A DNA stretch of 64,000 nt from Brevibacterium ihuae (GTDB lineage Bacteria > Actinomycetota > Actinomycetes > Actinomycetales > Brevibacteriaceae). This document shows positions 7,066 through 61,154 of the stretch, in pieces (positions within the stretch are counted from its first letter, which is position 1; the number at the start of each line of letters is the position of its first letter). Under the pieces are notes generated by a model. It was not told where the DNA came from and made no database searches. It worked only from the letters and a program-made list of their open reading frames with translations. A program made the position numbers and the translations under genes. The stretch is from positions 310,001 to 374,000 of the forward strand of contig NZ_FXWZ01000003.1 of the NCBI RefSeq assembly GCF_900184225.1, in the 5' to 3' direction.

Positions 7066-8367
7066 TCAGCGCAGCAGGCCTTCGTAGTGACGCTGCTGCA
7101 TCTGCGAATCGATCTGCTTGACGGTCTCGAGGCCCACACCGACGATGATGAGGATCGAGGTGCCGCCGAACGGGAAGTTCTGGTTGGCGTCGATGAGCAC
7201 GAGCGCGATGAGCGGGATCATCGCCACGAACGCGAGGTAGAGCGAACCCGGGAAGGTGATCCGGGTGAGCACGTAGCTCAGGTACTGCTCGGTCGGCCGT
7301 CCGGCGCGGATGCCGGGGATGAATCCGCCGTACTTCTTCATGTTGTCCGCGACCTCTTCGGGGTTGAAGGTGATCGCGACGTAGAAGTAGGTGAAGAAGA
7401 TCGTCAGCAGGAAGTAGACGAGCATGTAGACCGGGTGGTCGCCGGTGGTGAGGTACTCGGTGATCCACTGGACCCACTGCGCTTCGGGATCGCCGAACTG
7501 CGCGACGAGGCTGGGCAGGTACAGCACCGAGGAGGCGAAGATCACCGGGATCACGCCGGCCTGGTTGACCTTGATCGGGATGTAGGTCGAGGTGCCGCCG
7601 AACATCCGGCGGCCGACCATGCGCTTGGCGTACTGCACCGGGATGCGCCGCTGCGACTGCTCGACGAACACGACGAGCGCGACGATCGCGAGGCCGACGG
7701 CCACGACGATGAGGAAGATGTCGATGCCCTGCGAGGTGAGGATCGCGCCGAAAGCGGCCGGGAAGCCGGCGGCCACGGCGGTGAAGATCAGCAGCGACAT
7801 GCCGTTGCCCACGCCGCGCTCGGTGATCTGCTCGCCGAGCCACATGATGAGGCCGGTGCCCGCGGTAAGGGTGATGACGATGATGAGGACGCCCCACCAG
7901 GTGTCGTTGACGATGAGGTCCTGGCATCCCTCGACGTTGCCGAAGAGCGCACCGGTGCGCACCGTGGACACGAGGGTCGTGGCATTGAGGATGCCGAGGC
8001 CGATGGTCATGTAGCGCGTGTACTGGGTGAGCTTCGCCTGACCGGAGGCGCCCTCCTTGTGGAGCGCCTCGAAGCGCGGGATGACGACGCGCAGGAGCTG
8101 GGTGATGATGCTCGCGGTGATGTACGGCATGATGCCCAGCGCGAAGATCGAGAGCTGGAGCAGGGCCCCGCCGCTGAACAGGTTGATGAGGCCGAAGGCC
8201 CCCTGGCTGAGCTGCGGGTTCGCGACGCACTGCTGGACCTGGGCGTAGTCGATGCCGGGGGCGGGGATGTACGAGCCGAGCCGGTAGAGCACGACAACGC
8301 CGAGAGTGAAGAGGAGTTTGTTCCTCAGATCGGGCGTTCTGAAAGCCCGCCCAATTGCGCCGAGCAA
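7066..8367 (-). CDS. secY: Protein translocase subunit SecY
   Basis: Channel-forming subunit of the SecYEG translocon in the cytoplasmic membrane. The 433-residue protein has about ten hydrophobic spans, including the plug-region sequence after TM1 and the cytoplasmic loop GMSLLIFTAVAAGFPAAFGA. The C-terminal part NPEEVADNMKKYGGFIPGIR is strongly conserved in SecY. The start is TTG at 8367, preceded by AGGAGG four bases upstream, and no nearby ATG fits better. A terminator separates it from rplO, so secY-adk-map probably has its own promoter in the 241-bp gap. Confidence 0.97.
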   Translation of the reverse strand: MLGAIGRAFRTPDLRNKLLFTLGVVVLYRLGSYIPAPGIDYAQVQQCVANPQLSQGAFGLINLFSGGALLQLSIFALGIMPYITASIITQLLRVVIPRFEALHKEGASGQAKLTQYTRYMTIGLGILNATTLVSTVRTGALFGNVEGCQDLIVNDTWWGVLIIVITLTAGTGLIMWLGEQITERGVGNGMSLLIFTAVAAGFPAAFGAILTSQGIDIFLIVVAVGLAIVALVVFVEQSQRRIPVQYAKRMVGRRMFGGTSTYIPIKVNQAGVIPVIFASSVLYLPSLVAQFGDPEAQWVQWITEYLTTGDHPVYMLVYFLLTIFFTYFYVAITFNPEEVADNMKKYGGFIPGIRAGRPTEQYLSYVLTRITFPGSLYLAFVAMIPLIALVLIDANQNFPFGGTSILIIVGVGLETVKQIDSQMQQRHYEGLLR

Positions 8368-8609
8368 GCGTCCTCCTGGGGGTGTCCACCGGGCCGGACG
8401 GCCGCGCTCGCGCGCCGGCGCCGTCGATCCTCGGATGATGAGTCGTTGAGAGTACCTGTTGAACTGTAGCAGGGTGGTTCCGCGCGCCCGAAACCGGAGA
8501 ACCGGCCCCTGCCGGGCCGATCGCCGCCGGCCCCGGGTGCGGACGCGACGGGAGGGAGGCCGCCCGCAGGCGACCTCCCTCCGCTATCGACCGGGGTGAG
8601 GAATCATCC
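8368..8609. other. Spacer between rplO and secY
   Basis: No gene is visible. It holds the rplO terminator (8551-8582). On the minus strand there is a TACAGT box near 8466-8471, about 100 bp before the secY start, which might be a -10 element, but no good -35 box accompanies it. An independent secY promoter is plausible only by context. Confidence 0.4.
8551..8582 (-). terminator. Terminator of the S10-spc operon
   Basis: Fourteen-base arms (GGAGGGAGGCCGCC and GGCGACCTCCCTCC, one mismatch that becomes a wobble) close a 4-nt loop. It lies 28 bp past the rplO stop and would end the transcript that starts before rpsJ. Confidence 0.75.
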
Positions 8610-9062
8610 TCAGGCGGTCGTCGTCTTTCCGCCGGCCGCCTCGATCTTCTCGACGGCGGACGCCGAGAACTTGTCGGCGGTGATGTCGAGCTTGACGGAG
8701 ATCTCTCCGGTGCCCAGCACCTTGACCGGCTGCTTGGCGCGCACGGCGCCCTTGGCGACGAGCTCCTCGACGCCCACGGTGCCGCCCTCGGGGAACAGCG
8801 CCGACAGCTTGTCGAGGTTGATGACCTGGAAGGTCACCTTGTTCGGGTTCTTGAACCCGCGCAGCTTGGGGAGCCGCATGTGCAGCGGGGTCTGCCCGCC
8901 CTCGAAGCCGTGGGGCACCTGGTACCTGGCCTTCGTTCCCTTGGTACCGCGACCAGCGGTCTTGCCCTTCGACGCCTCACCGCGACCCACGCGGGTCTTG
9001 GCGGTCTTGGCACCGGGAGCAGGACGCAGGTGGTGCAGCTTCAGCACGTTCTCTTCTGCCAT
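8610..9062 (-). CDS. rplO: 50S ribosomal protein L15
   Basis: Late-assembly 50S protein. The 150-residue product has the glycine/arginine-rich N-terminal extension ([20 protein letters not shown]) that threads through 23S rRNA, followed by the globular domain. ATG start two bases after the rpmD stop region, TGA stop. It is the last gene of the merged S10-spc operon in this genome. Confidence 0.98.
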
Positions 9063-9063
9063 C

Positions 9064-9246
9064 TCAATCCACCTCTTCGCACTTCACCAGGTGGCGCACG
9101 GTGTTCACCATGCCGCGGAACTCCGGCCGGTCCTCTTTCACGACGACGTCGTTGATCTTCTTGAGACCGAGGCTCCGGAGGGTTTCGCGCTGGTTCTGCT
9201 TGCCACCGATTTCGGACTTGATCTGCGTGATCTTCAGCTGTGCCAT
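9064..9246 (-). CDS. rpmD: 50S ribosomal protein L30
   Basis: Small 60-residue 50S protein beginning [19 protein letters not shown] and containing [14 protein letters not shown], both typical of L30. Its ATG overlaps the rpsE stop by one base (TGATG), which indicates translational coupling. Length is exactly that expected. Confidence 0.97.
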
Positions 9247-9908
9247 CAGGCCTTCGCCCCGCTCTCTGCCGCGCGCAGCATGGCGTACGGCGCCACTTCG
9301 TCGACCGGGAGTCCACGGCGGGCGGCGACTTCCTCCGGCCGCTCGAGACCCTTGAGCGCCGCGATCGTGGCGTGCACGATGTTGATGGCGTTCGAGGAGC
9401 CCAGCGACTTCGAGAGGATGTCGTGGATGCCCGCGCAGTCGAGGACGGCCCGCACGGGACCGCCGGCGATCACGCCGGTGCCCGGTGCGGCCGGGCGGAG
9501 CAGGACGACGCCTGCCGCGGCCTCACCCTGGACGGGGTGCGGGATGGTCTGCTGGATGCGGGGGACGCGGAAGAAGCTCTTCTTCGCCTCCTCGACACCC
9601 TTGGCGATGGCCGCGGGAACTTCCTTGGCCTTGCCGTAGCCCATGCCCACCATGCCGTTGCCGTCACCGACGACCACGAGCGCGGTGAAGGAGAACCGAC
9701 GTCCGCCCTTGACCACCTTCGACACGCGGTTGATGGTGACGACGTGCTCGATGAACTGGTTCTTGTCGTCCCGGTCCTGCCGGTTGCCGCGACGGTTGTC
9801 GCGACCGCCGCCCTCGCCGCGTCCCCGGCCGCGTCCGCGGTTGCGGTCGTCGGTCTGCGGGGTCTCGGTCTGGGCCACCTGCTGGTCCTTGTTCTCTTCA
9901 GTGCTCAC
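9246..9908 (-). CDS. rpsE: 30S ribosomal protein S5
   Basis: Decoding-fidelity protein and the spectinomycin-binding neighbour. The 220-residue product has a low-complexity Arg/Gly-rich N-terminal extension (about residues 20-48). The S5 dsRNA-binding domain follows ([20 protein letters not shown], with [12 protein letters not shown]), then the C-terminal domain. The start is GTG at 9908, overlapping the rplR stop as GTGA. Such extensions are common in actinobacterial S5. Confidence 0.98.
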
Positions 9909-10285
9909 AGGGACAGTCCTCCTTCGCGTGCACCTTCTGCGATCGCGGCGACGCGGCCGTGGTAGGTGTTGCCGCCGCGGTCGAACACCACGGTCTCAAC
10001 GCCTGCTGCCTTGGCGCGCTCTGCGACGAGCTCGCCGACCCGGCGCGCCTTCGCGGTCTTGTCGTCGCCGGCACCCCGGAGATCCGCTTCCATGGTGGAG
10101 GCCGATGCGAGGGTCTTGCCGACGGTGTCGTCGATGACCTGCACGAACACGTGGCGGCTCGACCGGTTGACCACGAGACGCGGCCGCTCGGCGGTGCCGT
10201 TGATGTGCTTGCGCAGACGGTTGTGGCGACGGGCACGCGCAGCGGCCTTGCCCTTGCCGTAGCTCTGCTTCTTTCCGAAGGCCAT
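9905..10285 (-). CDS. rplR: 50S ribosomal protein L18
   Basis: Binds 5S rRNA together with L5. The chosen ATG at 10285 gives [21 protein letters not shown] and 126 residues. An in-frame GTG two codons upstream overlaps the rplF stop and is the alternative start. The C-terminal [20 protein letters not shown] is the conserved L18 signature. Confidence 0.97.
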
Positions 10286-10287
10286 GG

Positions 10288-10824
10288 TCACTTACCAGCC
10301 TTTCCGACCTTGCGGCGAACGTTCTCGCCGGCGTAGCGAACACCCTTGCCCTTGTACGGCTCGGGCTTGCGCAGCTTGCGGATGTTGGCCGCGACCTCAC
10401 CGACCTGCTGCTTGTCGATGCCGGAGACCGTCAGCTTGTTCTGCCCCTCGACCGAGAAGGTGATCCCGGCCGGCGGCTCGACGGTGATCGAGTGGCTGTA
10501 GCCGAGCGCGAACTCGAGGTTCGAGCCCTTGGCCTGCACACGGTAGCCGGTGCCGACGATCTCGAGCGACTTCGAGTAGCCCTCGGTCACACCGACGATC
10601 TGGTTGTTGATCAGGGTGCGGGTGAGTCCGTGGAGCGAGCGCGACTCGCGCTCGTCGTTCGGACGGGTGACGGTCACGGTGCCGTCCTCGAGCGCGACCT
10701 CGATCGGCTCGGCGACGGTGAGGCCGAGCTCGCCCTTGGGTCCCTTGACGGAGACCCGGCGGCCGTCGACCTTGACCTCGACACCGGACGGAACGGAGAT
10801 CGGCTGCTTGCCAATGCGTGACAT
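10288..10824 (-). CDS. rplF: 50S ribosomal protein L6
   Basis: Two-domain 50S protein near the sarcin-ricin loop and the factor-binding site. The 178-residue product starts [17 protein letters not shown] and ends with the second-domain signature [16 protein letters not shown]. Length and both repeated domains are normal. It is tightly packed with rplR. Confidence 0.98.
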
Positions 10825-12621: not shown

Positions 12622-12698
12622 TGGTTATCTCCTGTCGTCTCGTCGGTTCTCACCGCGCGGGCGAGCCTGACGGAACGGATGGTTGACGTGTGTGCCCT

Positions 12699-12754
12699 GC
12701 CCCGGGGTCCCGGTGGCCGCCTCGGAAGGGGCGGGACCGGGAGGGACCCGGGGC
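12699..12754 (-). promoter_or_regulatory. Imperfect hairpin between rpsQ and rplN
   Basis: The 146-bp gap between rpsQ and rplN holds an imperfect dyad: GCCCCGGGGTCCCGG at 12699-12713 and CCGGGAGGGACCCGGGGC at 12737-12754. It could be an attenuator or an RNA-processing site that separates the S10 and spc halves of the transcript. No T-run follows. Confidence 0.4.
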
Positions 12755-12767
12755 GTCGGCGGGCGTC

Positions 12768-13058
12768 TTACTTGGCGCGCTCGACGATCTCGACGAGGCG
12801 CCAGCGCTTGCTCGCCGACAGCGGGCGGGTCTCGGACACCACGACGAGGTCGCCGATGCCGGCGGTGTTCTCCTCGTCATGGGCCTTGATCTTGTTGGTC
12901 TTGCGCATGATCTTGCCGTAGAGGCGGTGCTTCTTGCGGTCCTCGATCTCCACCACGATGGTCTTGTCCATCTTGTCGGAGACGACGTAGCCGCGGGCGG
13001 TCTTGCGCGAGTTCCGCTCGGTCGCCTGCTCTGCGGCAGCCTGGGTCTGCTCGGCCAT
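12768..13058 (-). CDS. rpsQ: 30S ribosomal protein S17
   Basis: Primary 16S rRNA-binding OB-fold protein. ATG 13058 gives 96 residues. An Ala/Gln-rich N-terminal extension of about 20 residues precedes the conserved core [20 protein letters not shown] and the [17 protein letters not shown] region. The start overlaps the rpmC stop by one base (TGATG); an adjacent GTG is an alternative. Confidence 0.97.
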
Positions 13059-13315
13059 CACTTATCCTCTTCCTTGGCATCGGCCGGGTTCGACCGGATC
13101 GACAGCTCGCGCTCACGGAGCACGGTGTAGATCCGGGCGATGTCGCGGCGCACGGCCTTGAGACGGCCGTGGCTCTCCAGCTGGCCGGTGGCCGACTGGA
13201 ACCGGAGGTTGAACAGCTCGGCCTTGGCCTTCTTCAGCTCCTCGACAAGACGGTCGTTGTCGAAGCCGTCGAGGGCGTCCATGGACAGGTCCTTGGAACC
13301 GATCGCCATTGTCAT
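13058..13315 (-). CDS. rpmC: 50S ribosomal protein L29
   Basis: Small helical 50S protein near the exit tunnel, part of the docking region for SRP and trigger factor. The 85-residue product has the core [20 protein letters not shown] followed by [20 protein letters not shown]. The start overlaps the rplP stop as ATGA; a second in-frame ATG two codons later is possible. Confidence 0.97.
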
Positions 13316-13728
13316 TCACCACCTTCGCGCCGCACGATGCGGGCCTTGAGAGGAAGCTTGTGGATCGCCAGGCGCAAGGCCTCACGAGCGACTTCCTCGG
13401 GGACGCCGGCGAGCTCGAACAGAACTCGACCGGGCTTGACGTTTGCCACCCACCACTCGGGTGAGCCCTTGCCGGAGCCCATGCGGGTCTCAGCGGGCTT
13501 CTTGGTCAGCGGGCGGTCGGGGTAGATGTTGATCCACACCTTGCCGCCGCGCTTGATGTGACGGGTCATGGCGATACGAGCGGCCTCGATCTGCCGGTTG
13601 GTCACATAGGCGGGCTCGAGCGCCTGGACGCCCCAGTCGCCGAACGTGACCTCGTTGCCGCCCTTGGACATGCCACCGCGCTTGGGGTGGTGCTGCTTCC
13701 GGTGCTTGACTCGACGAGGGATCAGCAT
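13312..13728 (-). CDS. rplP: 50S ribosomal protein L16
   Basis: 50S protein near the A-site tRNA elbow. The 138-residue product starts [19 protein letters not shown] and contains the conserved [20 protein letters not shown] and [18 protein letters not shown] segments. Three bases separate it from the rpsC stop. Length is standard. Confidence 0.98.
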
Positions 13729-13731
13729 GTG

Positions 13732-14550
13732 TCAGCCCTCCGATCCGGCCGCGGCGGGAGCCGCCTCGGCGTTGTTGTCAGTCTTCCTCTGGCCGGCCTC
13801 GGGACGACGGTCGGAGCCCCGACCGCGTCCGCCGCGACCGCGACCGCGCGCTGCACCGCCGCGGGGTCCGCGGGCGTTGGGCTGCGCGGCCTCCTGGGCT
13901 GCGAGCTCCTTGTCCGTGAGGTCGCCCTTGTAGATCCAGACCTTCACGCCGATCCGGCCGAAGGTCGTGTGCGCCTCGTAGAAGCCGTAGTCGATGTTCG
14001 CGCGGAGGGTGTGCAGCGGCACGCGTCCCTCGCGGTAGAACTCCGAACGGCTCATCTCGGCGCCGCCGAGCCGACCCGCGCACTGGACGCGGACGCCCTT
14101 GGCGCCGGCGCGCTGCGCGGACTGGATGGCCTTGCGCATCGCGCGGCGGAACGCCACGCGGCTCGCGAGCTGCTCGGCGACTCCCTGGGCGACCAGCTGG
14201 GCATCGGTCTCGGGGTTCTTGACCTCGAGGATGTTGAGCTGGATCTGCTTGCCGGTGAGCTTCTCGAGCTGCCCGCGGATGCGGTCGGCCTCGGCGCCGC
14301 GGCGGCCGATGACGATGCCGGGACGCGCGGTGCGGATGTCGACGCGCACGCGGTCACGGGTGCGCTCGATGTTGACCTTCGAGATGCCGGCCCGCTCGAG
14401 GCCGGTGCTCAGCAGGCGCCGGATCTTGACGTCCTCGCCCACGTAGTCGCGGTAGCGCTGCCCGGCCTTCGTCGAGTCTGCGTACCACTTCGACTTGTGG
14501 TCGGTGGTGATTCCGAGTCGGAATCCGTTGGGATTGATCTTCTGTCCCAT
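13732..14550 (-). CDS. rpsC: 30S ribosomal protein S3
   Basis: mRNA entry-channel protein with helicase function. The 272-residue product has a KH domain (about residues 40-107, including [18 protein letters not shown]) and the S3 C-terminal domain. A low-complexity Arg/Gly then Ala-rich tail (about 220-272) is longer than in E. coli S3 but usual in actinobacteria. Its ATG overlaps the rplV stop (TGATG). Confidence 0.98.
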
Positions 14551-14936
14551 CAGCGGTTCCCCTTCCGTGAAGCGCTCGCCGGGACGTCGTCGCCGGACGC
14601 CAGGACCACGGTGATGTGGCTGGTGCGCTTGTTGATGCGGTAGGCACGTCCCTGGGCACGAGGCCGGAACCGCTTCATGGTCGGTCCCTCGTCCACGAAT
14701 GCTTCCGAGATGACCAGTTCGTTCTCGTCGAACGCCTCACCGAGCTTGTCGGCCTGGATACGCGCATTCGCGATGCCCGAGGCGACGAGCTTGTAGATCG
14801 GGTCGGAGGCCGACTGTTCTGCAAATTTCAGCACCGCCAGAGCTTCGGTTGCCTGCTGACCACGAATGAGGTCAACGACGCGCCGAGCCTTCTGGGGCGT
14901 GACGCGCAGGTAACGCGCCTTCGCCTTGGCTTCCAT
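14550..14936 (-). CDS. rplV: 50S ribosomal protein L22
   Basis: Exit-tunnel protein with the long beta-hairpin that lines the constriction. The 128-residue product starts [20 protein letters not shown]. The hairpin region is [20 protein letters not shown], which shows the wild-type pattern with no deletion of the kind that causes macrolide resistance. ATG start, 44 bp after rpsS. Confidence 0.98.
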
Positions 14937-14980
14937 CGCTTCCTTCTTTCCTTGTCGAAGATCGCTCAGAGCTGCCCGCC

Positions 14981-15262
14981 TCAGCGGCGGCGGCCCTTGC
15001 GATCGTCCTTGTCGTGGCCGCGGAAAGTCCGCGTCTGGGCGAATTCGCCGAGCTTGTGCCCGACCATGGCTTCGGTGATGAACACCGGCACATGCTTGCG
15101 TCCGTCGTGCACGGCGATCGTGTGTCCCAGGAAGTCCGGGATGATCATCGAGCGTCGGGACCAGGTCTTGATGACGTTCTTGGTGCCCTTTTCGTTCTGA
15201 GCAGCGACCTTCTGGTACAGGTGCTCGTCAACGAAGGGGCCCTTCTTGAGGCTACGAGGCAT
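14981..15262 (-). CDS. rpsS: 30S ribosomal protein S19
   Basis: 30S head protein that contacts S13 and 23S rRNA. The 93-residue product starts [19 protein letters not shown] and contains [20 protein letters not shown] and the [15 protein letters not shown] signature. Gene order between rplB and rplV is canonical. Confidence 0.98.
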
Positions 15263-15277
15263 TCTTCAGGCTCCCTA

Positions 15278-16114
15278 TCAACGCTTCTTGCCGGTACGGC
15301 GGCGACGCACGATGAGCTTGTCGCTTTCCTTCTTGGGGCGGCGGGTGCGGCCTTCCTTCTGACCCCACGGGCTGACCGGGTGGCGGCCACCCGAGGTCTT
15401 GCCCTCGCCACCGCCGTGCGGGTGGTCGACGGGGTTCATCACGACGCCGCGGACGGTCGGGCGCTTGCCCTTCCAACGCATGCGTCCGGCCTTGCCCCAG
15501 TTGATGTTCGACTGCTCGGCATTGCCGACCTCGCCGACGGTGGCGCGGCAGCGCACGTCGACGTTGCGGATCTCGCCGGACGGCAGGCGCAGCTGCGCGT
15601 ACGGCCCGTACTTCGCCACGAGCTGCACCGAGGAGCCGGCGGAACGAGCGATCTTGGCTCCGCCGCCCGGACGCAGCTCGACTGCGTGGATGACGGTGCC
15701 GACCGGGATGTTCCGCAGGGCCAGGCTGTTGCCCGGCTTGATGTCGGCCGTGGGGCCGGCCTCGATGCGGTCGTTCTGCTTGAGGCGGTTCGGCGCGAGG
15801 ATGTAGCGCTTCTCGCCGTCCGCGTAGTGCAGCAGCGCGATGCGTGCGGTGCGATTCGGGTCGTATTCGATGTGTGCGACGCGTGCGGGCACGCCGTCCT
15901 TGTCATGGCGACGGAAGTCGATGACACGGTACTGGCGCTTGTGTCCACCGCCGTGGTGGCGGGTGGTCACGCGTCCCTGGCTGTTGCGGCCGCCGCTCTT
16001 GGACAGCGGGCGCAGAAGCGACTTCTCCGGCGTCGACCGGGTCACTTCGACAAAGTCGGCGACCGAGGAGCCGCGTCGGCCCGGGGTCGTCGGCTTGTGC
16101 TTACGGATTCCCAT
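15278..16114 (-). CDS. rplB: 50S ribosomal protein L2
   Basis: Core 50S protein required for peptidyl-transferase activity. ATG 16114 gives [15 protein letters not shown] and the normal 278 residues; the frame is open further upstream, but this has no family support. The conserved loop [16 protein letters not shown], including the histidine near the catalytic centre, is present. Confidence 0.98.
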
Positions 16115-57460: not shown

Positions 57461-58804
57461 TCAGCGCATCGCGCGAGCGCGGATGACCTCCTCGACGAGG
57501 TCGGCCTCGGTCGCCCCGTAGAGGGTGCGCGCCCACACGGTGTCGCGGTCGGGGTACGGGGCGCCGTCGACGCGCAGCCACTGGAGGGGCTGACCCTTCC
57601 GCTGGTCGTGCGCGCACTTCGCGCACATCGGCACCGTGAGGTCGCGGCCGCCGCCGGCGGTGACCTTCCCCTCCTTGCGCGCCTCCCCGTGCCGGGGGTT
57701 GACCGTGCAGGTCCCGCGGAGTCGCGGAGCGGTCGTCATCCGGGTTGAGCGCTGACGCTCCACCGATTCGAGCGAGCGCTCGGCGATGTCGAACAGCACG
57801 AGCGAGCCGACGAGGTCGTCCTCGGCCGCGGAGGCGTCCTCGGCGATCCGTCGTGCGAGGCCGAACGCGTCGAGACCGCGCTGCACGGTCTCGGACTGCT
57901 CGGCGGTGAGCCCCTCGGTCCGCAGCGCCTCGAGCTTCTCCGCGATCCGCAGCGCATCCTGTCCGAGCACGCGCCGCATGCGATCGCGGTCGGAGCTCCG
58001 CGCCGCCTCCATGACGCTGTCGGGGATCCGGTATTTCCGGGATCGCACGGGACGGCTCCGGGCGAACAGCCAGACGCCGGCCACGAGCGCGGCGAAGACC
58101 GCACCGGCGATGAGCGCAGAGCGCACGGGACGGAACATCACCGCATTCTGCAGCCGATCCGACAGAGACGGCTCATAAGCCTCGTACTGCGGATCGACGA
58201 GGCGATCGAGCACATCGTTGAGCCATTCGAGACCCGACAGCCGGTAGTCCGGGTCGTGAACCCACTGGTCGAACTGCTGCTCGACGGCGAGACTCGCGTC
58301 GAGGTCCTCGAGCTCGACGGCGTGGCCGAGCTCCCCGTCGGCGGACATGACGACGTAGGCGCCCTGACCGCCGTGCGCCTGTGCGATGAGCAGCGAGAGA
58401 TCGTTGAGCCTCTCGTAGTCGAGCTGCCCGGCGAGGACGAGGTAGGTGGGGTGCTTCGTCGCCGCCACCTTCTCCTCGAGCAGGCCGAGGGTGGGCTGCG
58501 TGTAGCGGTCGGCCGCCGCGTCGTCGACGTACAGCGGGGATTCGTCGAGCGCCTCGGCGATCCGCATCGCGGTCTCGAGCGTCGTCTCCGAGCCCTCGAG
58601 CAGCTCCTCGACCTTCTCCGCATCGGTCTGCTCCGGCACCTCGGTCGTCGAGCCCGAGCCCGGGTCCGTGCTCGGCTGCGATGCGGCGAGCAACGGCGCC
58701 GCGACGGCCCCGTCCTGCGGGGTCGCGGCGAGCGCGGGGGCACCGCTGAGCAGCGCTGCGGCCATCCCCGCCGCCAGCCCGGCGGCGGCGAACATCGATC
58801 TCAC
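57461..58804 (-). CDS. Secreted/membrane-anchored protein of a two-gene envelope system, unknown function
   Basis: A 447-residue protein from GTG 58804. It has a signal peptide (cleavage near ALAA, about residue 27) and an extracytoplasmic region with the module ALDESPLYVDDAAADRYTQP leading to HPTYLVLAG (about 84-126). One membrane helix follows (about 229-248, LIAGAVFAALVAGVWLFA). The cytoplasmic tail is helical and ends in a metal-binding-like region with Cys366, His372, Cys394 and Cys397 (CTVNPRHGEA, VPMCAKCAHD). The start is 7 bp after the upstream gene, so they form an operon. The extracytoplasmic module recurs twice in the partner. Family not recognised. Confidence 0.7.
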   Translation of the reverse strand: MRSMFAAAGLAAGMAAALLSGAPALAATPQDGAVAAPLLAASQPSTDPGSGSTTEVPEQTDAEKVEELLEGSETTLETAMRIAEALDESPLYVDDAAADRYTQPTLGLLEEKVAATKHPTYLVLAGQLDYERLNDLSLLIAQAHGGQGAYVVMSADGELGHAVELEDLDASLAVEQQFDQWVHDPDYRLSGLEWLNDVLDRLVDPQYEAYEPSLSDRLQNAVMFRPVRSALIAGAVFAALVAGVWLFARSRPVRSRKYRIPDSVMEAARSSDRDRMRRVLGQDALRIAEKLEALRTEGLTAEQSETVQRGLDAFGLARRIAEDASAAEDDLVGSLVLFDIAERSLESVERQRSTRMTTAPRLRGTCTVNPRHGEARKEGKVTAGGGRDLTVPMCAKCAHDQRKGQPLQWLRVDGAPYPDRDTVWARTLYGATEADLVEEVIRARAMR

Positions 58805-58811
58805 CGGTCTC

Positions 58812-61154
58812 TCACTTCCGTCCCTGATTGCTGATGTACGTGCGGCCGAGCACCAGTCCGCCGATGCCGAGCACCACGAACACCGTCGCGCCGAGGACGA
58901 TCACCGAGGTCCGCACCCGGTCGAGGTACTCCGGAGTGCCGGGGAACGGCCCCGGCTCGTAGTCCTCGGCGTCGGCCTCGTAGAGCCTGCGGGCCTCGGA
59001 CTCGAGGTCCATCCCCTCGTACCACTCGATGCGGGGCAGCGCGAGGAGGTACTCCCCGACGACACGCGGCGGCGGCAGGTCGTCGGTCCGTTCGCGGAGC
59101 TCCTGCTCCCCGCTCGTGAAATCGGAGATCGCGTCATAGCGCTCGTAGCGCACGAAGCCGTCCCCGACGAGGATGAGCGTCGTGTCCTGCGGGATCCGGT
59201 CGAAGAGCGCGAGCTCGAAGGCCGTCTGCTCACCGCGGAACTCGTCGGTCCTCTCGATGCTCGTCACCACGACGGCGACGGGCTCTTCGGACTCGCCCAC
59301 GAGTTGGGCGAAGCGCTCCTCGTCCTCGGGGGCGTACCGGATCCGAGCAGTCGGGTCGATGTACACCCCGTCCTCCTCGACGGCCGCGGCCACCGCGTCG
59401 ACACGGGCCATGTCGTACTCGGAGCCGAGCGCGACGAGCGGGAGATGCGCAGGCGACGCGACCGAGACGATGCTCTCGCGACGGTCGCTCTCCCGCAGGG
59501 ACCCGAGGCCGGCGACGAGGGCCGGGATGATGAGGGCGAGGACCGTGACATGGACCCACGCCGGCAGCCACGGGCGCAGAGGTGCACTCGCCGGAGTCGC
59601 ACGACGGTCGCCGGCGTTCTGACGCCTCCGGGCGCGGTCGCGCTCATCGGCCTCGCGGAGCGCCGCGTCGAATGCACTCGGCTCGTCGAACACACCCGGC
59701 TCCGGCTCCCAGTCCTCCGGCGCATCGGCGAGCGCGGCGCTCAGCGGTCGGAACGCGCCGAAGCCGCTGAGTGCGAACGGCGAGTCCGCGTCCCGCCAGT
59801 ACGGCCGGCCCTGCCCGAGGCCCGTTGCGGAGAGGAAGTCGGGGTCCTCCCCCGCGGCGAGCTGGCGGGCGATCCCGGCGGACACCGGCACCTCGACGTC
59901 GCCGCCGAACCCGTCCCAGCTCCGCCGCTCATCCGCCTCGAGCTGCGGGAGGAAGAAGCAGCGTTCGCGGGAGCGTCCGCGCGCCTCGTCATCGAGCACC
60001 GTCCACGCGGTCCACACGAGGGGGTTCGTCGTGTCGCCCGGAGCGGGCAGCCGATCGACGGCGGCGCCGAGGTCTCCCGGCAGCGGCTCGCGCCGCTCCA
60101 GGCTCATCCGCGCACCGATCGCCCGGTCGCGCATCCGGTTGAGATCGCGCAGCAGCACGACGGAGTCCGCCGCCGCAGCGCGACCGCGCCCCACCGTCGA
60201 GCGCAGGAAGGGAACGGCTCCGAGGGCTTCGGCCCCGGCGCGGATCATCCAGATGATGACGAGGTAGGCGACGCCGAGGCCGCCGCCCACCCCGATGAGG
60301 ACGGCCGTCCAGAACACGGGGACCATCGGCACCCGGTCGGCTGCGGCGTGCTCGGGCCGCACGTCCCGGGCCGTCGGGGTGAGCTCCTCGATGTCGAGCG
60401 GCTCCGCGTCCGCGGACGGGTCGAGACCGGTGCGGACCGCATAGTGGATCGCGGGACCGGGGACCTCGGTGTTGAGATCGCGGGCATGGACCTGCGTGAG
60501 CGAGCGGGAGAGCGCACCATCCGACAGACGCAGCGTGAGCACCCCGCTGTCCGGGACCCACAGGACGTAGAGCGCCGTGCCGATCCCGCGCGCTTCGGCA
60601 TCGGCGAGGAGGATCTCCTCGATGATCAGCTCGTCCGCCTCGCCCGTGTCGAGCTCTCCGGTGCGATCGCGGCTGGGGAGATCGCGGATGAGTGCGATGA
60701 AGACCGGCGTGCTCGCCGGCTCGACCTGTTCGAGCGCGCGCGAGGTGATCTCCTGCTGGCGCTCGTCCCAGAACGACGCGACCTGCGGGTCGGCGTACAC
60801 CTCACCCGCGCTCCACGCGGCGCCCATCCGCTCGACGTAGCCGTCGATGTACCACTGCCGAGCGGACTCGGCGAGCGCTGCATCGTCGGGTTCGGCTCCC
60901 CCGTCGTCCGCTGGGGCTTCGGACCCCTCGTCCCCCGGAGGGATGCCGCCGGCCGGTTCGTCGGCGGGCGCCTCGGCTGCGGCACGGACCTCCGCGCTGC
61001 TCGGGCCCGCGGGCGAGGTCGCCGCGGCGGGACGGGCGAGGATCGCGGGGCCGAATCCGAGCGCGACGCAGGCGACGAGACCGAGCGCACGCCCGAGCAC
61101 CGAGGCACGCCGACGACGGCGCACAGTGCGGTCAGGCGGAGGACAGTCGGGCAT
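58812..61154 (-). CDS. Large multi-domain membrane protein of a two-gene envelope system, unknown function
   Basis: A 780-residue protein from ATG 61154 with about four hydrophobic segments. They are an N-terminal signal/anchor (about 19-45), a central span (about 279-304), another span (about 533-553) and a C-terminal span (about 750-770). Extracytoplasmic module 1 is at 113-158 (GEVYADPQVASFWDERQQEI ending TPVFIALIRD). A cytoplasmic region (310-530) is charged and partly helical. Module 2 is at 583-632 (EEDGVYIDPTARIRYAPEDE ending PVAVVVTS). Both resemble the module in the downstream protein. No enzymatic motif seen. Confidence 0.7.
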   Translation of the reverse strand: MPDCPPPDRTVRRRRRASVLGRALGLVACVALGFGPAILARPAAATSPAGPSSAEVRAAAEAPADEPAGGIPPGDEGSEAPADDGGAEPDDAALAESARQWYIDGYVERMGAAWSAGEVYADPQVASFWDERQQEITSRALEQVEPASTPVFIALIRDLPSRDRTGELDTGEADELIIEEILLADAEARGIGTALYVLWVPDSGVLTLRLSDGALSRSLTQVHARDLNTEVPGPAIHYAVRTGLDPSADAEPLDIEELTPTARDVRPEHAAADRVPMVPVFWTAVLIGVGGGLGVAYLVIIWMIRAGAEALGAVPFLRSTVGRGRAAAADSVVLLRDLNRMRDRAIGARMSLERREPLPGDLGAAVDRLPAPGDTTNPLVWTAWTVLDDEARGRSRERCFFLPQLEADERRSWDGFGGDVEVPVSAGIARQLAAGEDPDFLSATGLGQGRPYWRDADSPFALSGFGAFRPLSAALADAPEDWEPEPGVFDEPSAFDAALREADERDRARRRQNAGDRRATPASAPLRPWLPAWVHVTVLALIIPALVAGLGSLRESDRRESIVSVASPAHLPLVALGSEYDMARVDAVAAAVEEDGVYIDPTARIRYAPEDEERFAQLVGESEEPVAVVVTSIERTDEFRGEQTAFELALFDRIPQDTTLILVGDGFVRYERYDAISDFTSGEQELRERTDDLPPPRVVGEYLLALPRIEWYEGMDLESEARRLYEADAEDYEPGPFPGTPEYLDRVRTSVIVLGATVFVVLGIGGLVLGRTYISNQGRK

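What the first reader, a model, noticed from the sequence alone, without database searches (positions are those of the whole stretch)
57461..61154. Two-gene envelope system built on a repeated extracytoplasmic module
The 780-aa and 447-aa membrane proteins, 7 bp apart, share a module seen three times: VYADPQVA to PVFIALIRD, VYIDPTA to PVAVVVTS, and LYVDDAA to PTYLVLAG. The pattern is helix, [LV]Y[VIA]D, a 13-25 residue helical stretch, then a hydrophobic strand. All three copies are predicted outside the membrane. The smaller protein has a cytoplasmic Cys/His cluster that could bind zinc. I recognise no described function, and two proteins sharing one sensor-like module suggests hetero-oligomerisation.
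Basis: partly seen in the sequence, partly recalled or inferred. Interest (0 to 1): 0.62.

Follow-up and report, generated by a model that had tools for sequence, protein, structure and literature searches.

The report
Fused three-gene actinobacterial envelope operon
Two neighbouring membrane-protein genes in a Brevibacterium-type bacterium are a rearranged copy of an undescribed three-gene operon found across actinobacteria, whose proteins share an outside domain resembling the TPM domain and an inside zinc-finger-like domain; it is probably a membrane assembly or maintenance complex, but its function is untested.

Summary
A780 (61154..58812, -) and B447 (58804..57461, -) are 7 bp apart and share one extracytoplasmic module three times. 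A profile built from 59 modules of other loci, without the window's own clade, scores B at E 3e-17 and the two copies in A780 at 3e-10 and 5e-4; the next best of 530 window frames scores 0.71. AlphaFold2 gives all three the same order of helices and strands.

The unit is not an original two-gene system. Most Brevibacterium, and Kribbella, carry three genes: A1 (module-TM-zinc motif), A2 (module only) and B (module-TM-zinc motif), in Brevibacterium usually between rplL and rpoB. These loci hold three modules and two CxPH..CxxC motifs. The window has a second paralogue, beside a glutaminase gene, with A1 and A2 fused and A1's zinc ligands lost.

Pfam and NCBIfam have no family for it. The module most resembles TPM domains (BA41, Rhodothermus TPM, a mycobacterial supercomplex chain), but only remotely. 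Best reading: a hetero-oligomeric TPM-like membrane scaffold with a cytoplasmic zinc domain. Hetero-oligomerisation is supported indirectly; a sensor role is not.

The parts
58812..61154 (-). Gene A (780 aa): signal sequence, module 1, TM, cytoplasmic domain with degenerate zinc site, TM, module 2, TM; a fusion of A1 and A2 of the three-gene operon
   Evidence: ORF; front half aligns with A1, back part with A2; natural A1-A2 fusion in L070; AlphaFold2; TM flanks
60504..60884 (-). Module 1 of gene A (residues 91-217)
   Evidence: iE 5e-4, residues 106-202; secondary structure, pLDDT mostly 79-96
59727..60023 (-). Cytoplasmic domain of gene A (residues 378-476) matching the zinc domain of B and A1, with the ligand Cys/His other than C399 lost
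   Evidence: CFLFPHH..LCVDC in A1 against CFFLPQL..VPVSAGIA here; own-genome match of the B profile at G000:C3:369748-369984, E 2.6e-8
59085..59417 (-). Module 2 of gene A (residues 580-690)
   Evidence: (iE 2.8e-10, residues 580-675)
57461..58804 (-). Gene B (447 aa): signal peptide, module, TM, helical cytoplasmic region, zinc-motif domain
   Evidence: 21 homologues aligned; AlphaFold2
58259..58582 (-). Module of gene B (residues 75-182)
   Evidence: E 3e-17; pLDDT 83-96; Foldseek: TPM structures on top
57749..58021 (-). Cytoplasmic helices of B (residues 262-352), probably a three-helix bundle
   Evidence: helices 262-293, 301-322, 328-352
57467..57727 (-). Cytoplasmic zinc-motif domain of B (residues 360-446): C366 and H372, then a beta-hairpin, then C394xxC397 at the start of a helix
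   Evidence: four ligands invariant in 21; three invariant, last at least 90% across the class; strands 377-383 and 387-393, helix 395-402

Best explanation
The pair is a relocated, duplicated and fused version of a widespread but undescribed actinobacterial three-gene operon (A1-A2-B). The operon encodes three remotely TPM-like extracytoplasmic modules on membrane anchors and, on A1 and B, a cytoplasmic helical region ending in a CHCC zinc-finger-like domain. Shown here: the repeat, the operon, its recurrent content of three modules and two zinc motifs, the fusion, the paralogy, and the loss of A's zinc ligands in the window's clade. Inferred: the modules assemble with one another outside the membrane into a hetero-oligomer, the zinc domain docks a cytoplasmic partner, and the complex acts as an assembly or maintenance scaffold for other membrane protein complexes, as proposed for TPM-domain proteins. 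My probabilities: about 0.9 for the anatomy and history, 0.7 for a hetero-oligomer, 0.55 for TPM-like ancestry of the module, and 0.35 for the assembly or maintenance role; the score below is for the whole.
For: Repeat; same predicted secondary structure: 35, 60. Three-gene operon between rplJ-rplL and rpoB in most Brevibacterium: 16-18; same gene order in Kribbella: 31. Of 37 loci of the titled genome set, 22 Brevibacterium and all 9 Kribbella contigs have three modules and two CxPH..CxxC motifs at the operon; the other six (L091-L096, window-type clade or cut by a contig end) have 0-3 detectable modules and one motif there: 82. A1-A2 fusion: alignment 43; fused frames also in L070 (729 aa) and L113 (778 aa): 82. 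Paralogy: window-type B proteins form one clade (100/99), and G002, G005 and G030 also carry a second, distant copy: 74. The window's rplL-rpoB interval lacks the operon: 23, and its genome has no second close copy: 7, 8. TPM-like: Foldseek top four for B are two chains of BA41, the Rhodothermus TPM domain and 8ovc chain V: 40; weak Pfam hits of single modules to Rv1476, DUF5130 and TPM: 51; profile comparison above reversed controls: 73. Assembly role of TPM proteins in the literature: PMC11237479, PMC12419801, PMC8267372 (CcoZ, with DUF5130 and TPM domains, is needed for full oxidase activity and resembles MSMEG_4692 of the mycobacterial supercomplex).
Against: No TPM match passes a usual threshold: Foldseek E 0.02-0.3 for B, no TPM structure in the top 50 for A780, no Pfam model above cut-off, hhalign probabilities only 18-58% with one reversed control at 8.5%. 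Neighbours differ between lineages (rpl/rpoB, carboxylase genes, aconitase and a protein kinase, GroEL), so context names no client. There are no interaction or expression data. Some copies have fewer detectable modules: the window-type clade, and the rplL-rpoB copies of G002, G015 and G030. The operon is broken by stops in B. iodinum and unmatched in several Brevibacterium, so it is dispensable there.
Confidence: 0.4

Rival explanations
1. A transmembrane sensor: the modules detect an envelope state and the cytoplasmic zinc domain passes it to a cytoplasmic partner.
For: Module-TM-cytoplasmic zinc domain layout; in two genomes (G093, G126) the operon lies next to a Ser/Thr protein kinase gene.
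Against: No kinase, phosphatase, regulator or other output domain in either protein; neighbours are not regulatory elsewhere; in the window's A protein the zinc ligands are lost.
Confidence: 0.2
2. An extracytoplasmic phosphatase or nucleotidase: the modules are catalytic, as claimed for some TPM domains.
For: Remote TPM resemblance; a paper cited in PMC11237479 reports ATPase/ADPase activity of a TPM domain (reference seen).
Against: The module alignment has no invariant column, unlike a conserved enzyme site; PMC12419801 argues that TPM domains are unlikely to be phosphatases. TPM catalytic or metal residues were not mapped here.
Confidence: 0.1
3. A cell-wall maintenance complex related to mycobacterial Rv1476 rather than to TPM proteins in general.
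For: The lowest E-value of a single module in Pfam is to Rv1476 (0.0051) and the longest profile alignment is with Rv1476 (90 columns). Rv1476 has the same plan of N-terminal domain and C-terminal TM with a basic tail (sequences). In G093 and G126 the operon neighbours aconitase, as Rv1476 does in M. tuberculosis (own knowledge: acn, Rv1476, ripA, ripB).
Against: Below the Rv1476 cut-off; only 3 Rv1476 sequences in the comparison, and without the window clade its probability falls to 21%; Rv1476 lacks the zinc domain; its own function is unclear (PMC10888442).
Confidence: 0.2

Closest known systems
TPM domain (Pfam PF04536; TLP18.3/Psb32/MOLO-1; BA41, YdjH)
   Same: Alpha/beta domain of about 110 residues on a membrane anchor; top Foldseek hits of B; weak Pfam and profile matches
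   Different: No match over the family cut-off; three copies per operon; a cytoplasmic zinc-motif domain on A1 and B; [LV]Y[VIA]D motif after a long N-terminal helix
DUF5130 (PF17174) and MSMEG_4692 of the mycobacterial III2-IV2 supercomplex
   Same: TPM-like fold in actinobacteria; DUF5130 and TPM models hit many of the same loci; 8ovc chain V is the fourth Foldseek hit; PMC8267372 describes MSMEG_4692 as having a TPM domain. That chain V is MSMEG_4692 is my inference
   Different: Single domain, no zinc domain; the modules are below the DUF5130 cut-off
Rv1476 family (PF20381)
   Same: N-terminal alpha/beta domain, one C-terminal TM and a basic tail, as in the signal-less Brevibacterium B and A1 proteins
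   Different: No cytoplasmic zinc domain, one copy, below cut-off
Actinobacterial single-gene relatives with glycine-rich tail (in L204, L205, L206; G000:C3:1621427-1622332)
   Same: Same TM, cytoplasmic helices and CFFxPxHGP motif
   Different: One gene; some lack the module; CAAD in place of CxxC; often next to a biotin-carboxylase gene, in the window's genome near pspA

Membership tests
TPM domain (PF04536) | Sequence match to the Pfam model over its cut-off | tested here: not met
   1 of 66 modules at E 0.036, none over cut-off; nothing for A780 and B447; no PF04536 match in the window's genome
TPM domain (PF04536) | TPM fold | tested here: inconclusive
   B: 5anp E 0.023 prob 1.00 TMt 0.49, 7tbr E 0.28 prob 0.85; A780: none in top 50
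TPM domain (PF04536) | Profile-profile similarity | tested here: inconclusive
   hhalign 18-46%, E 1e-3 to 2e-4; reversed TPM control 8-8.5%, E 0.004
TPM domain (PF04536) | Conserved metal or catalytic residues | not tested
   not mapped
Rv1476 (PF20381) | Match to the Pfam model over its cut-off | tested here: not met
   one module at E 0.0051, below cut-off; no match in the window's genome
DUF5130 (PF17174) | Match to the Pfam model over its cut-off | tested here: not met
   one module at E 0.021; no match in the window's genome
Undescribed A1-A2-B operon family | Three modules in tandem or fused genes | tested here: met
Undescribed A1-A2-B operon family | Intact zinc motif on both A1 and B | tested here: not met
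   Present in B; ligands lost in A780 and its clade, although the domain itself is still recognisable in A780; so the window is a derived member by descent
Undescribed A1-A2-B operon family | Binds zinc | not testable with these tools
   needs a purified protein

The most novel reading that the evidence does not exclude
A dedicated three-subunit actinobacterial membrane machine in which three different TPM-like modules form one extracytoplasmic hetero-oligomer coupled through the membrane to a zinc-finger platform in the cytoplasm, a kind of TPM system not described before.
Probability: 0.25. Interest if true: 0.6.

Novelty: new variant of a known kind. Interest (0 to 1): 0.42.

Why it matters
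Pfam and NCBIfam hold no model for a membrane-protein family whose relatives occur in 47 of 98 genomes sampled across the class. Its recurrent three-module, two-zinc-motif operon gives a concrete, testable complex, and Brevibacterium offers natural variants (split, fused, duplicated, zinc-less, broken) for testing it. If true it would extend TPM-like proteins from single domains to a multi-subunit transmembrane assembly, and it bears on the open question of what TPM proteins do.

Tried and rejected
Chance similarity: rejected by the leave-clade-out profile; the shuffle test in the same script failed to run and was not repeated. Known family by sequence: rejected. PDB profile search with the module alignment: only chance-level hits. 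Foldseek with full-length A780: uninformative, a long multi-domain query. Class-wide profile searches with alignment A1 at n=300 and n=200 returned no answer; A5 at n=100 worked. The first genome-contig scan with the single protein found nothing. Promoter and terminator scans found no site. 'Envelope system of the Micrococcales' was rejected as the scope. The window's pair as the original arrangement was dropped.

Full report
What is there. The two genes are on the - strand: A, 780 aa, 61154..58812, and B, 447 aa, 58804..57461, with 7 bp between them. Pfam, NCBIfam and PDB sequence searches give nothing of use. The window lies in a genome of 3.10 Mb.

The repeat is real. A profile built from the modules of B proteins alone already scored the 780-aa frame at E 1.7e-5. 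A profile of 59 modules from other loci, with the window and its closest clade (L051, L052, L054-L056) left out, gives B447 E 3e-17 and A780 two copies, residues 580-675 (iE 2.8e-10) and 106-202 (iE 5e-4); the next best of 530 window reading frames has E 0.71. The second half of that script, a comparison with shuffled modules, stopped with an error and was not repeated. AlphaFold2 models of B (mean pLDDT 77.9, module 83-96) and A (73.8) show the same order of elements in all three copies. I could not superpose them, because coordinates are not returned.

Layout. Both proteins of the window have N-terminal signal sequences; charges around the TM helices favour modules outside and the C-terminal part of B and the middle part of A inside. 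B's cytoplasmic part is three helices followed by C366 and H372, a beta-hairpin, and C394xxC397 at the start of a helix. That order is like a treble-clef zinc finger; this is inference. The ligands are invariant in 21 B proteins of the genus and nearly so across the class.

The three-gene operon. In most Brevibacterium the related genes lie between ribosomal protein genes rplJ-rplL and rpoB (gene names from my reading of the sequences) and are three: A1 (module, TM, zinc motif), A2 (TM, module, TM) and B. Adjacent genes abut or overlap by a few bases in several species (coordinates). Kribbella antiqua has the same three genes in the same order, with signal peptides. Of the 37 loci of the titled set, 22 Brevibacterium and all 9 Kribbella contigs hold three modules and two CxPH..CxxC motifs at the operon; the other six (L091-L096) belong to the window's type or are cut by a contig end and show 0-3 detectable modules and one motif there.

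The fusion. A780 aligns over its first half with A1 and over its last part with A2, and L070 carries a natural A1-A2 fusion that bridges the two. L113 has one 778-aa frame with both modules. So A is a fused A1-A2. In two other families of the class (G093, G126, G144) two modules and one zinc motif are fused in a different order (sequences).

Paralogy. A tree of 29 B proteins puts the window, G003, G031, G002, G030 and one copy of G005 in one clade (100/99). G002, G030 and G005 also carry a second, distant copy elsewhere. Five of the six lie by a glutaminase gene; the G005 copy lies elsewhere. The window's own rplL-rpoB interval has no operon but a lipoprotein-like gene, a large membrane protein and others, and no other close copy was found in its genome. 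In the window's clade A has lost the zinc ligands except C399, while the domain around them is still recognisable.

Signal peptides. B and A1 at the rplL-rpoB locus lack a signal peptide in many species: the open frame upstream holds no start codon that would add one. They then resemble Rv1476, an N-terminal domain followed by one TM and a basic tail. How such modules reach the outside is unexplained.

Distribution. Single-sequence searches found B in 30 of 59 genomes, all of this genus, and in none of the 21 other genera of the order. A profile of 20 B proteins from several families finds relatives in 47 of 98 genomes of the class. Many of these are single-gene relatives with a glycine-rich tail, often next to a biotin-carboxylase gene. 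The window's genome has one such relative at G000:C3:1621427-1622332, without a module, near groEL (my reading) and genes for PspA, PspAB and an M48 protease.

What the module is. Foldseek with the B model has BA41 (5anp), the Rhodothermus marinus TPM domain (7tbr) and chain V of the M. smegmatis supercomplex (8ovc) as its best hits, at E 0.02-0.3 with probability 0.72-1.00. A780 as a whole finds none of them. Single modules hit Rv1476 (0.005), DUF5130 (0.021) and TPM (0.036) weakly; with 66 modules tested such values can arise by chance. hhalign gives 18-58% against TPM, DUF5130 and Rv1476, and at most 8.5% against reversed controls. I read this as remote common ancestry, more likely than not but not proved, and do not file it as a TPM member.

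How it may work. TPM proteins have been proposed to help assemble membrane-linked complexes (PMC11237479; PMC12419801), and CcoZ of Campylobacter, with DUF5130 and TPM domains, is needed for full oxidase activity (PMC8267372). By analogy the operon may build a hetero-oligomer of three modules that supports other membrane complexes, with the zinc domain holding a cytoplasmic partner. The steady operon content and the fusions support physical association; the role itself is inference. Gene neighbours do not settle it, since they differ between lineages.

Verdict. A real, undescribed family and operon; the window holds a derived copy. The fold is probably of a known kind and the function is open.

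Noticed in passing
L067:8655-9872, L061:8297-9487 and other rplL-rpoB copies: B and A1 proteins at this locus lack a signal peptide although the module should lie outside; the upstream frame has no start codon that would add one.
   Followed up: partly
G000:C3:1621427-1622332 (L200:8428-9333): A module-less relative with TM, CFFNPQHGP motif and glycine-rich tail lies near groEL, pspA, pspAB and an M48 protease gene in the window's own genome.
   Followed up: partly
window:55079-56128 (-): One frame carries a Cro/CI-type HTH_3 followed by TetR N-terminal and TetR_C_24 domains, a possible double DNA-binding regulator, near a MaoC-like dehydratase gene.
   Followed up: no
window:62104-63894 (-): Glutaminase fused to STAS and cyclic-nucleotide-binding domains.
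   Followed up: no
   Followed up: partly
G000 (whole genome): No match to PF04536 (TPM) or PF17174 (DUF5130) in the window's genome, although 40 and 38 of 60 class genomes have them.
   Followed up: no
L133:1843-4113 and 7858-10707; L137:6149-8449 and 12622-15393: In two genomes the operon lies between an aconitase gene and a Ser/Thr protein kinase gene (names from my reading of the sequences).
   Followed up: no
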